Shown in pieces: positions 15,535 through 20,141 of a stretch of 64,000 bases of DNA. Source of the stretch: Burkholderia sp. NRF60-BP8 (GTDB taxonomy: Bacteria > Pseudomonadota > Gammaproteobacteria > Burkholderiales > Burkholderiaceae); contig NZ_CP013373.1 of the NCBI RefSeq assembly GCF_001522585.2, positions 2,914,001 through 2,978,000 on the forward strand, given 5' to 3'. The stretch's first letter is position 1. Every line of letters starts with the position of its first letter. The notes under the pieces are model-generated. The model was given only the letters and a program-made list of their open reading frames with translations, was not told the origin of the DNA and did no database searches. A program made the translations under genes and the position numbers.

Positions 15535-16263
15535 ATGAGCCCTACCCTGACCACGGCGATGATCTTCGCCGCCGGACGCGGCGAGCGGATGCGCCCGCTG
15601 ACCGACACCTGCCCGAAGCCGCTGCTCGAAGCCGGCGGCAAGCCGCTGATCGTCTGGCAGATCGAGGCGCTTGCGCGTGCGGGCATCGAGACGATCGTGA
15701 TCAACCACGCGTGGCTCGGCGAGCAGATCGAGGCCGCGCTCGGCGACGGTTCGCGCTGGGGCGTGCGGCTCGCGTATTCGGCCGAGGGCGACGCGCTGGA
15801 AACCGCCGGCGGCATCGCGCAGGCGCTGCCGCTGCTCGAGCGCGACGGACAGCCGGCCGTGTTCGCGGCCGTCAGCGGCGACGTGTATTGCGCGTTCGAC
15901 TACCGGACGCTCGCGCCGCGCGCCGCCCGGATGGCCGCGCTCGACACGCCGGCGATGCACCTCGTGATGGTGCCGAACCCGCCGTTCCATCCGGCCGGCG
16001 ACTTCGCGCTCGGCGACGACGGCCGTCTCGCGCTCGACGGCGCCGCGCGCTTCACGTTCGGCAACATCGGCCTGTACGACACGCGGATGTTCCGCGACCT
16101 CGCGCCCGGCACGCGGCGCGCGCTGACGCCGTACTATCGCGCGGCGATCGAAGCCGGCCGCGCGAGCGGCGAGCTGTACGAAGGGATCTGGGAGAACGTC
16201 GGCACGCCCGCGCAGCTCGGCGAGCTGGATCGGAAACTCAAAGATTCGTTGAACTCGAACTAA
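15535..16263 (+). CDS. murU: N-acetylmuramate-1-phosphate uridylyltransferase (MurU-like)
   Basis: A 242-residue sugar nucleotidyltransferase. The signature FAAGRGERMRPLTDTCPKPL lies at residues 11-30, followed by GGKPLIVWQIEALARAGI, and the metal-binding Asp in AAVSGDVYCAFD. Paired with AmgK it would convert MurNAc-1-phosphate to UDP-MurNAc for cell-wall recycling. ATG 15535 is preferred over the longer open frame, which overlaps amgK. The last residues, RKLKDSLNSN, are Asn/Lys-rich and AT-rich like the insert that begins just downstream, so the native C-terminus may have been altered by that insertion. Confidence 0.85.
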   Translation: MSPTLTTAMIFAAGRGERMRPLTDTCPKPLLEAGGKPLIVWQIEALARAGIETIVINHAWLGEQIEAALGDGSRWGVRLAYSAEGDALETAGGIAQALPLLERDGQPAVFAAVSGDVYCAFDYRTLAPRAARMAALDTPAMHLVMVPNPPFHPAGDFALGDDGRLALDGAARFTFGNIGLYDTRMFRDLAPGTRRALTPYYRAAIEAGRASGELYEGIWENVGTPAQLGELDRKLKDSLNSN

Positions 16264-16323
16264 ATCGCCCCTTCTTGCACACTAATTTGAGACAACCTCG
16301 TAACGCTAGAATGGCAGTAAGCT

Positions 16324-16354
16324 TATAATCACCTCCTCCATCGAGGAAGCCTTC
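16324..16354 (+). promoter_or_regulatory. Likely -10 element and ribosome site of the ATPase/DUF4276 operon
   Basis: A perfect TATAAT stands at 16324-16329, followed by GAGGAAG at 16343-16349, 5 nt before the ATPase ATG at 16355. A convincing -35 was not found at 16-18 bp spacing (TAACGC region). The distance between -10 and ATG leaves a leader of about 20 nt. The elements suggest the pair has its own promoter rather than depending on murU. Confidence 0.5.
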
Positions 16355-17515
16355 ATGATCGTCACTCATCTCAAATTAAAAAATTGGCGCAATTTTCGCG
16401 AAGTTGACGTTCCACTACGTGACCGCACCTACCTACTCGGAGCAAACGCTTCCGGAAAATCGAATCTACTCGATGCATTTCGGTTTCTGAGAGATGTGAG
16501 CAAGCCGCAAGGCGGCGGACTACAAAAGGCCATTCATGATCGCGAGGGAATTCAGAAACTCCGCTGCCTGCATGCACGCAGGGACCCGGAAGTTAGTATC
16601 GAAGTCCATGTCGCCGAAAATGTGGACGACGACAAACCACTCTGGCGATATATATTGGGATTTAAACCCGAAGGAAAAGGCGCCCAACGCACACTGATTT
16701 CGATAGAGCAGGTATGGCAAGGCGAAAAATGTTTACTGAATCGACCAGATGAGAACGACAAAAAGGACGCAGTCCGTTTAACGCAGACAGCACTCGAGCA
16801 AATCCAGGGTAATGCAAAGTTCCGCGAACTCGCCGCATTCTTCGCAGAAACGACCTATCTGCATCTCGTTCCTCAACTACTCAAGTACGGTGACAAAATT
16901 GGCGGACAACGTCTCGAAGAAGATCCTTTTGGACAAGGCTTCCTTGAGCGCATCGCGAAAACACCCGAAAAAACGCGCGATTCACGCTTAAAAAAAATTG
17001 GTGCTGCTTTAGAGTTGGCTGTTCCTCAGTTCAAAGAATTGCGCTTCGCTCCTGACAAAATAAACGGCCGACCACATTTGGAAGCAAAATATTCGCACTA
17101 TCGACCAAATGCCGGATGGCAGCGTGAAGAGCAGTTTTCAGATGGCACCCTGCGACTACTAGCGCTTCTATGGGTGCTCCTTGAGGGAGATTCTTTACTG
17201 CTGCTAGAGGAACCAGAGCTATCTCTAAATGACGCCATTGTCCGCGAAATCCCTCGGCTACTGCATCGCATTCAACGAGATAGAAAGCGGCGTCCCCGGC
17301 AAGTGCTGATTAGCACGCACAGCGAGGCGCTGCTGAGCAATCCTGCCATCGATGGCCGCGGAGTTCTGCTACTTGAGCCTGCGCAAGAGGGAACTCGTGT
17401 TCGACCTATCAATGCACAGGAAGAATTCGCGCTTAAAAATGGGCTGTCGGTCGCAGAAGTAGTGCTTCCTAAAACGCACCCCAAAACCGCCGAACAATTG
17501 GGACTGTGGCAATGA
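16355..17515 (+). CDS. SMC/RecF-like AAA ATPase of a two-gene candidate defence module
   Basis: A 386-residue ATP-binding-cassette-type ATPase of the AAA_21/OLD-like kind. MIVTHLKLKNWRNFREVDV is the typical first strand pair; Walker A is GANASGKS at residues 29-36; a signature-like FSDGTLRLLALL begins at Phe261; Walker B is LLLLEEPELSL with Glu285 and Glu286; the switch histidine is in ISTHSEALL (His322). The central region lacks a long coiled coil. Its stop overlaps the next ATG (ATGA), so the two proteins are translationally coupled. G+C is near 50 percent by eye against about two thirds in flanking genes, indicating recent transfer. ATPases of this type work with a TOPRIM or nuclease partner in AbiL-, PARIS- and OLD-like anti-phage systems; function here is inferred from that pattern. 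Confidence 0.8.
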   Translation: MIVTHLKLKNWRNFREVDVPLRDRTYLLGANASGKSNLLDAFRFLRDVSKPQGGGLQKAIHDREGIQKLRCLHARRDPEVSIEVHVAENVDDDKPLWRYILGFKPEGKGAQRTLISIEQVWQGEKCLLNRPDENDKKDAVRLTQTALEQIQGNAKFRELAAFFAETTYLHLVPQLLKYGDKIGGQRLEEDPFGQGFLERIAKTPEKTRDSRLKKIGAALELAVPQFKELRFAPDKINGRPHLEAKYSHYRPNAGWQREEQFSDGTLRLLALLWVLLEGDSLLLLEEPELSLNDAIVREIPRLLHRIQRDRKRRPRQVLISTHSEALLSNPAIDGRGVLLLEPAQEGTRVRPINAQEEFALKNGLSVAEVVLPKTHPKTAEQLGLWQ

Positions 17516-18096
17516 CGTGGCTAGTTATAGCAACGGAAGATGAGGTAAGTGAGCAGATCGGAAAACGTTTGGCACAGGAGGCCGGCCTTGAGGTCGGTCT
17601 TTGTATAGGCAAGCAGGGCAATGGATATTTAAGGAAGCGCATTCCAAACCTATGCCAAATGTCCGAGCAGCAACCCGTTTTATTAATCACGGATCTTGAT
17701 CAGATCGCCCATCCGAAAATTTTGATCAAGGAATGGCTCGGCACGAAAAAACCATCCAAGAATTTGGTGTTCAGAGTAGCGGTTCGTGAAATTGAGTCCT
17801 GGATACTTGCTGACCACGTAGCCATGCGAACGTTGCTGGGGCCTAAGGTTTCGAAACTTCCGCAAACCCCTGACGAATTAGCAGACCCTAAGCAGACGTT
17901 GCTAGCATTGGCTCAAAAAGCGCACCGCGACGTACGGGACGACTTGGTTGTTTCCCAAGGCAGTGTCTCCTCGCAAGGCTTCGGGTACAACGCTCGACTA
18001 AGCCAATTGATCAGCACTGCATGGTGCCCGGAAAGAGCGTCCGCGCGTTCGCCAAGCTTGTCACGCGCTCGCGCTAGACTGCAAACGCTGGTCTAG
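17512..18096 (+). CDS. DUF4276/RloB-like (TOPRIM-fold) partner protein
   Basis: A 194-residue protein whose ATG at 17512 overlaps the ATPase stop by 4 nt. The pattern is that of DUF4276/RloB-like proteins: an N-terminal strand with an acidic turn (VIATEDEVSEQ, Glu9-Glu11), a second acidic strand LLITDLDQ (Asp61, Asp63) and the diagnostic VREIESWILAD (Glu93, Glu95, Trp97, Asp101), then GYNARLSQLI and a C-terminal SPSLSRARARLQ. Acidic Glu...DxD spacing is what a TOPRIM-like metal site needs, so a nuclease is plausible but not shown. Codon use is AT-richer than the host except for the final 25 codons. Stop lies 16 nt from the convergent ABC gene. Confidence 0.65.
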   Translation: MTWLVIATEDEVSEQIGKRLAQEAGLEVGLCIGKQGNGYLRKRIPNLCQMSEQQPVLLITDLDQIAHPKILIKEWLGTKKPSKNLVFRVAVREIESWILADHVAMRTLLGPKVSKLPQTPDELADPKQTLLALAQKAHRDVRDDLVVSQGSVSSQGFGYNARLSQLISTAWCPERASARSPSLSRARARLQTLV

Positions 18097-18112
18097 ACCG
18101 ACACGCTGCTGC

Positions 18113-19981
18113 TCAATAGCCCGCTGGATACTCGGCTTGCTCGCGGTTCCGCTGCTGCAACGCCCACATCTGCGCATACAGCCCGTCGGCGCGCACGAGT
18201 TCGTCGTGCGTGCCGCGCTCGACGATCCGCCCGTGGTCCATCACGAGAATCTGCTGCGCGTGCACGACCGTCGACAGCCGGTGCGCGATCACGAGCGTCG
18301 TGCGATGCCGCGCGATCTGGTCGAGTTCGTGCTGGATCGCGCGTTCCGAGCGCGAATCGAGCGCCGACGTCGCTTCGTCGAACAGCAGCACCGGTGGATC
18401 CTTCAGCAGCGTCCGCGCGATCGCGACGCGCTGCTTTTCGCCGCCCGACAGCTTCAGCCCGCGCTCGCCGACCGGCGTGTCATAGCCCTTCGGCAACCCC
18501 TCGATGAAATCGTGGATGTGCGCGGCGCGCGCGGCCGCGACCACTTCGTCGCGCGTCGCCGTCGGCCGGCCGTACGCGATGTTGTAGTAGATCGAGTCGT
18601 TGAACAGCACGGTGTCCTGCGGCACGATCCCGATCGATGCGCGCAGCGATTCCTGCGTGACGTCGCGGATGTCCTGGCCGTCGATCCGGATCGCGCCGCC
18701 CGCCTGCCGGTCGAGATCGTAGAAGCGGAACAGCAGCCGCGACAACGTCGACTTCCCCGAACCGCTGTGGCCGACCACCGCAGTCGTCGTGCCGGCCTCG
18801 ATCGTAAACGTCACGTCGTGCAGGATCTGCCGCGACGGCTCGTACGCGAAGTTCACGTGCTCGAAGCGCACCTGCGCGCCGGCCACCGCGAGCGGCGGCG
18901 CATCGGGCCGGTCGGCCACTTCCTTCGGCGCCGACAGCAGCCCGAACATCCGGTCCATGTCGGTCAGGCTCTGCTTCAGCTCGCGATAGACGACGCCGAG
19001 GAAGTTCAGCGGAATGTACAGCTGCAGCATGAACGTGTTGATCAGCACGAGATCGCCGAGCGTCAGCTTGCCCGCGAGCACGCCCTGGGTTGCGCGCCAC
19101 AGGATGAACACGAGCCCCGTGCCGATGATCGCCTGCTGGCCGAAGTTCAGCACCGACAGCGAGTTCTGCGAACGGATCGCGGCCTTCCGGTAGCGCTTCA
19201 GGTTCTCGTCGTAGCGTTGCGCCTCCCACTCCTCGTTGCCGAAGTACTTCACCGTCTCGTAGTTGATCAGCGAGTCGATCGCCCGCGAGTTCGCGCGCGA
19301 ATCGAGTTCGTTCATCGTGCGGCGGAAATGCGTGCGCCAGTTGGTGACCTTCACGGTGAACACGATGTACGTGACGAGCGCCGCGAACGTCACGTACGCG
19401 TAGTAGGCCTCGTACTTGACCACGAAGAAGCCGAGCACGAGCCCGACCTCGACGAGCGTCGGCAGGATGCTGTACAGCGAATACGAAATCAGTTGCTGGA
19501 TGCCGCGCGTGCCGCGCTCGATGTCGCGCGACATGCCGCCCGTCTGGCGCTCGAGGTGAAACCGCAGCGACAGCCCGTGCAGATGCCGGAACACCTGCAG
19601 CGCGAGCTGGCGCACCGCGCTCTCGGTGACTTTCGAGAACAGGATTTCGCGCAGCTCGGTAAAGAGCGACGTCGACAGCCGCACGAGCGCATACGCGACG
19701 ACCAGCAGCCCGACGCCGCCCGCGAGCACGATCCCGGCCGACTGCTCGGCACGGCCGAGCGCGGTGAGCTGCTGCACGGCGGACAGATGATCGACGATGC
19801 GCTTCATCACGACCGGCACGCCGAGGTTCGCGACCTTCGCACCGATCAGGCAGCCGAGCGCGAGTGCGACGCGCCATTTGTAGGTGGTCAGGTACGGCAG
19901 CAGCGACCGGATGGTCTGCCAGTCGTTGCGAGGCCCGGTCGAAGCCGGCGCGGGCTCGCCGGAAGCGGGAAATCGGCGCAT
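18113..19981 (-). CDS. Atm1/HMT1-type ABC exporter (fused permease and ATPase)
   Basis: A 622-residue half-transporter. The membrane domain covers about residues 45-330 and contains SRAIDSLINYETVKYFGNEE-type sequence, the Atm1/ABCB7 family hallmark. The nucleotide-binding domain has Walker A GHSGSGKSTLSRLL, signature LSGGEKQRVAIART, Walker B VLLFDEATSALD and the switch His in VIAHRLSTV. Proteins of this class export glutathione-linked or sulphur-containing compounds and help with metal homeostasis. ATG 19981 (MRRFPASGEP) is chosen because the longer frame upstream is only Arg-rich. Gene stands alone, convergent with the inserted module and divergent from the thioesterase. Confidence 0.9.
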   Translation of the reverse strand: MRRFPASGEPAPASTGPRNDWQTIRSLLPYLTTYKWRVALALGCLIGAKVANLGVPVVMKRIVDHLSAVQQLTALGRAEQSAGIVLAGGVGLLVVAYALVRLSTSLFTELREILFSKVTESAVRQLALQVFRHLHGLSLRFHLERQTGGMSRDIERGTRGIQQLISYSLYSILPTLVEVGLVLGFFVVKYEAYYAYVTFAALVTYIVFTVKVTNWRTHFRRTMNELDSRANSRAIDSLINYETVKYFGNEEWEAQRYDENLKRYRKAAIRSQNSLSVLNFGQQAIIGTGLVFILWRATQGVLAGKLTLGDLVLINTFMLQLYIPLNFLGVVYRELKQSLTDMDRMFGLLSAPKEVADRPDAPPLAVAGAQVRFEHVNFAYEPSRQILHDVTFTIEAGTTTAVVGHSGSGKSTLSRLLFRFYDLDRQAGGAIRIDGQDIRDVTQESLRASIGIVPQDTVLFNDSIYYNIAYGRPTATRDEVVAAARAAHIHDFIEGLPKGYDTPVGERGLKLSGGEKQRVAIARTLLKDPPVLLFDEATSALDSRSERAIQHELDQIARHRTTLVIAHRLSTVVHAQQILVMDHGRIVERGTHDELVRADGLYAQMWALQQRNREQAEYPAGY

Positions 19982-20141
19982 GGGGGAAGGGTTGTGCGGC
20001 GGTACGGGCCGCGCGGATCGGCGGCCAGCTCGCGCGCTTTCTCGTACAATTTGCGAACGTTGTATTGTCGCAGAAGCCGCTTCGCGCCGCTGCCGGCGCC
20101 CTCGCCGGCCACGCTGCGCGCGGCGGCCCATTTATTACAGG

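What the first reader, a model, noticed from the sequence alone, without database searches (positions are those of the whole stretch)
16264..18112. Compact AT-rich two-gene island: SMC/RecF-like ATPase plus DUF4276/TOPRIM-like protein, candidate anti-phage module
Two overlapping genes (ATGA) with about 50 percent G+C lie between murU and an ABC exporter gene in a chromosome of about 67 percent. The first has Walker A GANASGKS, a signature-like FSDG and Walker B LLLLEEPE; the second has acidic Glu, DxD and VREIESWILAD, the DUF4276/RloB-like pattern. ATPase plus TOPRIM or RloB-type partner is the theme of AbiL, PARIS and OLD-like systems. This pair matches none of them by eye and carries no nearby integrase, tRNA or repeats, so it may be a minimal form that enters by recombination. 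Function as defence is inference.
Basis: partly seen in the sequence, partly recalled or inferred. Interest (0 to 1): 0.75.

Follow-up and report, generated by a model that had tools for sequence, protein, structure and literature searches.

The report
Two-gene HEC-01 ATPase–nuclease defence candidate
A small foreign two-gene cassette in a Burkholderia chromosome encodes an ATP-binding switch protein and a probable nuclease, and it belongs to a predicted but little-studied family of anti-virus systems that phages themselves also carry.

The parts
16230..18150 (.). inserted/replaced stretch relative to congeners, including the new last codons of murU and of the ABC exporter gene
   Evidence: in 62 congener loci homology stops at 16229 (51), 16230 (9), 16217 (1) or 16232 (1) and resumes at 18151 (52), 18150 (5), 18153 (3), 18140 (1) or 18131 (1)
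16355..17515 (+). gene A: HEC-01A ABC/OLD-type ATPase, 386 aa; Walker A GANASGKS, FSDG, Walker B LLLLEEPE
   Evidence: PADLOC HEC-01A 2.8e-153; PF13304 4e-35; these motif residues are invariant or at least 90% conserved in a 25-row alignment, except S33
17512..18096 (+). gene B: HEC-01B / DUF4276, 194 aa, predicted Toprim-type nuclease with helical C-terminal part
   Evidence: PADLOC HEC-01B 1.5e-53; PF14103 27.1 bits; model and structural neighbours; conserved E9, G36, D61xD63, E95, K127
17512..17515 (+). ATGA stop/start overlap of A and B (translational coupling inferred)
   Evidence: sequence
16264..16354 (+). AT-rich leader of the pair, with purine-rich GAGGAAG before the ATG; no consensus promoter found in it
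   Evidence: sequence; the only promoter-like site in 16200-18200 is at 16629, inside A, no more than chance
15538..16263 (+). murU-like nucleotidyltransferase; last residues LDRKLKDSLNSN instead of LDARLRAAAG-type
   Evidence: PF00483; tails compared
18113..20131 (-). ABC exporter gene, convergent with the pair; tail LQQRNREQAEYPAGY instead of LQQQRAAAGGEEAEAA-type
   Evidence: PF00664, PF00005; tails compared

Best explanation
The island is a minimal HEC-01 system: a split OLD-type pair. A is an ABC-class ATPase (shown by profile) that probably oligomerises and sequesters or gates B. B is a Toprim-fold, metal-dependent nuclease (fold and motifs supported by prediction and conservation, activity inferred). 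During phage infection A probably changes state, for example on sensing a phage product, DNA ends or nucleotide depletion. It would then release or open B, which cleaves host or phage nucleic acid and aborts the infection. ATP control, the trigger, the substrate (DNA or tRNA) and the abortive outcome are inferred from PARIS, Gabija and OLD. The pair probably reached this chromosome by horizontal transfer (inferred from composition and distribution). It lies in a convergent gene junction where the 3' ends of both flanking genes differ from those of congeners and both frames remain closed (shown by comparison).
For: PADLOC HEC-01A and HEC-01B over nearly full length. In 13 of 13 other distinct loci with a B match, A lies directly upstream on the same strand (in one of them, L074, only the last 79 residues of B match). 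B's top structural neighbours are OLD C-terminal regions, AriB and GajA: 8 of the best 9 rows, 143-163 residues aligned, next row 84. E9, G36, D63, E95 and K127 are in 78 of 78 rows and D61 in 77 of 78, matching the Toprim Glu, Gly and DxD described in passages of PMC6755086. In 17 of 17 E. coli carriers the pair sits between P2-like cI and int. In 3 of the 4 viral contigs found it sits near phage genes. The cI-int gap is a described defence hotspot in a P2-related phage of Vibrionaceae (PMC9122126, passages). Empty site in 62 of 64 congeners.
Confidence: 0.72

Rival explanations
1. Toxin-antitoxin or addiction module: B is a toxic nuclease, A its neutraliser, kept mainly for its own persistence; phage defence is incidental.
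For: AAA-Toprim/OLD pairs behave as toxin and antitoxin in toxicity neutralisation tests (PMC10440598, passages); a ParD/ParE-like pair occupies the same junction in another genome.
Against: The pair is carried by prophages next to the repressor. TA-like behaviour and defence are not exclusive.
Confidence: 0.15
2. Host DNA repair or anti-plasmid/anti-conjugation function of a RecF/Rad50-like ATPase with a nuclease partner.
For: A aligns with Rad50 and RecF-type sequences.
Against: Patchy: 3 of 65 genomes of the genus, 9 of 398 of the family; foreign G+C; phage cargo.
Confidence: 0.1
3. Inactive relic or metabolic pair of no immune role.
For: No expression data; the pair stands alone between murU and the exporter gene.
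Against: Both frames intact; candidate catalytic residues near-invariant in 78 rows; conserved two-gene order.
Confidence: 0.03

Closest known systems
HEC-01 (PADLOC-DB 2.0; 'Hma-embedded candidate')
   Same: both proteins match HEC-01A/B models over nearly full length, adjacent and in order
   Different: here a cassette between murU and an ABC exporter; HECs are described as Hma-embedded candidates (PMC12988326, passages)
PARIS (AriA + AriB)
   Different: B is DUF4276, not DUF4435; no AriB model matched
OLD / Gabija GajA
   Different: two genes instead of one; the adjacent genes are murU and an ABC exporter, not a GajB helicase
AbiL (AbiLi + AbiLii/RloB)
   Same: ATPase + Toprim-related partner; AbiLi 1.3e-17 for A; an RloB-like viral model is B's best BFVD row, E 3.1e-3, probability 1.00
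   Different: no AbiLii or RloB profile match for B

Membership tests
HEC-01 (PADLOC) | HEC-01A protein | tested here: met
   PDLC04180 2.8e-153, 508.6 bits, residues 1-384
HEC-01 (PADLOC) | HEC-01B protein adjacent to A (that these two make the system is read from the model names; PADLOC's own rule was not read) | tested here: met
   PDLC04194 1.5e-53, residues 4-193; 4-base overlap with A
HEC-01 (PADLOC) | embedding in an Hma gene cluster (origin of the name, not known to be required) | not tested
   neighbours are murU and an ABC exporter; no profile search for Hma genes was made
HEC-01 (PADLOC) | anti-phage activity | not testable with these tools
   needs plaque assays
Toprim nuclease | Glu after strand 1, Gly after strand 2, DxD after strand 3 | tested here: met
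   strands 3-8, 27-33, 56-61; E9 78/78, G36 78/78, D61 77/78, D63 78/78; definition from passages of PMC6755086
Toprim nuclease | fold similar to solved Toprim nucleases | tested here: met
Toprim nuclease | metal-dependent cleavage of nucleic acid | not testable with these tools
   needs biochemistry
PARIS | AriB / DUF4435 partner | tested here: not met
   Pfam scan at E up to 1 lists PF14103 only; no AriB among 13 PADLOC matches
AbiL | AbiLii / RloB (PF13707) partner | tested here: not met
   not among the Pfam or PADLOC matches of B
OLD class 1-3 | ATPase and Toprim in one polypeptide | tested here: not met
   two genes, 386 and 194 aa
Gabija | GajB helicase next to GajA | tested here: not met
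   gene after the pair is an ABC exporter, gene before is murU

The most novel reading that the evidence does not exclude
HEC-01 is a separate split-OLD class in which the ATPase is the constant, host-state-sensing half and the DUF4276 nuclease is the fast-changing half, opposite to what a phage-recognising sensor would show. It travels as a bare ~1.9 kb cassette, by homologous exchange, into a convergent murU|ABC junction that acts as a small landing site across Burkholderiaceae.
Probability: 0.3. Interest if true: 0.6.

Novelty: new member of a known kind. Interest (0 to 1): 0.42.

Why it matters
HEC-01 is a named candidate, but I found no mechanism for it in the held literature. The term 'HEC-01' is in 15 papers, of which, judging by titles, one concerns phage defence; there it is a list entry. 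'DUF4276' is in none. A Toprim assignment with named residues makes it testable. The E. coli P2-borne pair gives a laboratory version. The empty-site comparison suggests how a bare two-gene cassette can be gained with no mobility gene seen beside it.

Tried and rejected
Considered as PARIS, AbiL, Gabija or OLD proper and set aside because the partner profiles or gene architecture do not match.

Fold of B by sequence: no PDB chain by phmmer at E up to 10; the profile search gave five rows that look like chance, best E 0.25. Foldseek against PDB gave no E below 1e-3, and the 50 rows shown are Rossmann-like and other unrelated proteins. Only the second-look aligner put OLD-type domains on top. 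The ATPase model is too poor to use, so I ran no fold search on it and claim nothing about an A-B interface.

Single shared insertion in the window's lineage and G328: not supported and not excluded. The A tree pairs them with support 44/77 (43% of 200 bootstrap trees); the B tree in 0%. Pair DNA is 72% identical where it aligns, flanking core DNA 72-82%. The clade test in that script failed for both trees (wrong method name) and was not repeated.

Attachment repeats at the ends: none seen. Plasmid and phage records: B matches 0 of 72,556 and 0 of 50,697. A gave no phage match and one short partial plasmid match. The E. coli version of B gave no phage match. These collections may leave out records very near the window's genome.

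Neighbours of the pair in L069 and L070: one ORF each profiled, no Pfam match.

Literature: searches. The source preprint for HEC systems (Payne et al. 2024) was seen only as a citation, not read, so I cannot say whether HEC-01 itself was tested there. One paper (PMC9519451) was searched for terms and held nothing on this pair.

Not done: no search of same-species strains without the island; no integrase profile scan of the window; species not determined (genus taken from names of the closest proteins).

Full report
1. What is there. The window's two ORFs are as described. A is 386 aa (16355-17515) and B is 194 aa from its ATG (17512-18096), overlapping in ATGA. The pair has 50.8% G+C; 1172 windows of equal size elsewhere in the 64 kb all have at least 63.0%. 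GC3 is 0.46 and 0.55, against 0.92 (murU) and 0.89 (ABC exporter). No tRNA lies in the window and no repeat pair bounds the insert.

2. What the proteins are. Pfam gives A as PF13304 (4e-35) and B as PF14103/DUF4276 at 27.1 bits, just under the 30.2 cut-off; of the 78 aligned B rows 65 match that family and no other family is matched. NCBIfam has no model above its cut-off for either. PADLOC gives the name: A matches HEC-01A (PDLC04180, 2.8e-153) and B matches HEC-01B (PDLC04194, 1.5e-53; two more models at 7e-48 and 3e-33). Four other B relatives (one from E. coli) and the E. coli A, tested the same way, also have HEC-01 models as best matches. A resembles AriA (9.5e-31), MADS Mad3, AbiLi, GajA and Old more weakly. 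By sequence its best solved relatives are GajA and Rad50.

4. Spread and order. B is found in 3 of 65 genomes of the genus at E 1e-3 or better and in 9 of 398 of the family at 1e-10 or better, both counts including the window's genome. A is found in 4 of 144 genomes of a second genus (g20) at 1e-60. In 13 of 13 other distinct loci with a B match, A lies directly upstream on the same strand, and A is the more conserved in each (55-86% against 32-62% identity to the window). One of the 13, L074, is incomplete: A is cut by the contig end and only the last 79 residues of B match. In 14 A/B pairs that I matched by eye through equal contig length between the two protein lists (not all possible pairs), mean divergence from the window is 21% for A and 44% for B, ratio 2.1. 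So the ATPase is the more constant half. If A were the part that reads a variable phage protein, one would expect the reverse; I take this as weak support for sensing a conserved cue.

5. Phage cargo. 17 of 5426 E. coli genomes hold a relative (A 53%, B 31% identical in the copy compared); two of the 17 are entries for one strain, H32. All 17 hold the whole block cI-A-B-int of a P2-like prophage at 99.7-100% identity, so they are nearly one sequence, not 17 independent cases; 92 further genomes matched part of the block, and the eight of these listed matched in the integrase. Annotation was read for three. In one of the 17 (NZ_CP041678.1) the B position is annotated as two hypothetical proteins, so B may be broken there. 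Two scans of IMG/VR found four contigs with A or B. In three the pair lies near phage genes: tail, endolysin and DNA methyltransferase in L138; CII and repressor in L139; terminase in L140. The fourth, L137, ends with gene A, shows ORFs like those of the host locus L069, and its one neighbour tested matched no PHROG. Passages of PMC9122126 describe defence hotspots in P2-like phages and, in a P2-related Vibrionaceae phage, one between cI and integrase. This context is the best evidence for an immune role. Against it, no plasmid or phage record matches B, and the eight neighbours profiled in six other bacterial loci are metabolic, transport or regulatory genes.

6. The site. In 62 of 64 other species of the genus the murU homology and the ABC homology are 79-415 bp apart (median 179), with no room for the pair; in the other two (L061, L062) no ABC homology follows murU in the 3.7 kb taken, and the ORF there looks by eye like a potassium transporter. 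Homology breaks at window 16229-16230 in 60 of 62 and resumes at 18150-18153 in 60 of 62. Both breakpoints are inside coding sequence: murU now ends LDRKLKDSLNSN and the exporter LQQRNREQAEYPAGY. Tails were printed for 12 of the 64: the murU tails are of the LDARLRAAAG kind with variations, and 8 of the 10 exporter tails found are of the LQQQRAAAGGEEAEAA kind. So the insert brought new 3' ends for both convergent genes.

7. The same junction elsewhere. In its genus murU and ABC could be measured on one contig in 140 of 144 genomes (two on different contigs, one without an ABC match, one without a murU match); 128 gaps are under 500 bp, median of all 140 is 134. The four largest gaps (1.9-2.3 kb) are G328's pair and three insertion sequences. 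Of the eight gaps of 574-883 bp one holds a ParD/ParE-like pair; in the other seven I recognised no gene by eye. The junction is therefore a tolerant landing place, lightly used. Trees do not decide whether the window's pair and G328's share an origin at the site.

8. Mechanism. By analogy with PARIS (AriA holds AriB, trigger releases AriB, AriB cuts tRNA; passages of PMC12409363) and with Gabija/OLD (nucleotide-gated Toprim; passages of PMC12796447), I propose that A gates B. Shown: gene order, ATPase class, foreign composition, altered flanks. Supported by prediction: B fold and motifs. Inferred: oligomer, gating, nuclease activity, substrate, trigger, abortive outcome, horizontal route.

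9. Place among known systems. It is HEC-01 by profile. It is built like the split OLD class (PARIS), but is not PARIS, AbiL or Gabija by the features tested. In the papers held, 'HEC-01' is in 15, of which by title one concerns phage defence, and there it is a list entry; 'DUF4276' is in none. HECs are described as Hma-embedded candidates, several of them, including HEC-06, active (PMC12988326, passages).

Noticed in passing
L122, L123, L124 (murU-ABC gaps of G480, G429, G408): three different insertion-sequence transposases sit in the same convergent murU-ABC junction in other genomes
   Followed up: partly
L128:1288-1793: a ParD-like/ParE-like toxin-antitoxin pair occupies the same junction in G434
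   Followed up: partly
L074:1-1278: a Rhodoferax MAG contig has A followed at once by only the last 79 matching residues of B: a truncated B or an assembly fault
   Followed up: no
L090 (NZ_JBRERL010000005.1): a 56.8 kb circular record called a plasmid holds a P2-like prophage plus a run of E. coli chromosomal genes (rcdA to yliI); an excised or mis-assembled chromosomal piece seems likely
   Followed up: no
L091:1452-2069: the P2-like prophage of E. coli EC261 also carries a TIR-domain gene between portal and replication genes, so it may hold two defence-like cargoes
   Followed up: no
L016:2140-2330: the murU-ABC gap of G057 contains a long run of short GCTGTTCG/GCTGGTCG tandem units
   Followed up: no
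L137: a contig filed as viral ends with gene A and its ORFs look like the host locus L069, so it may be a host stretch at a prophage call boundary
   Followed up: partly
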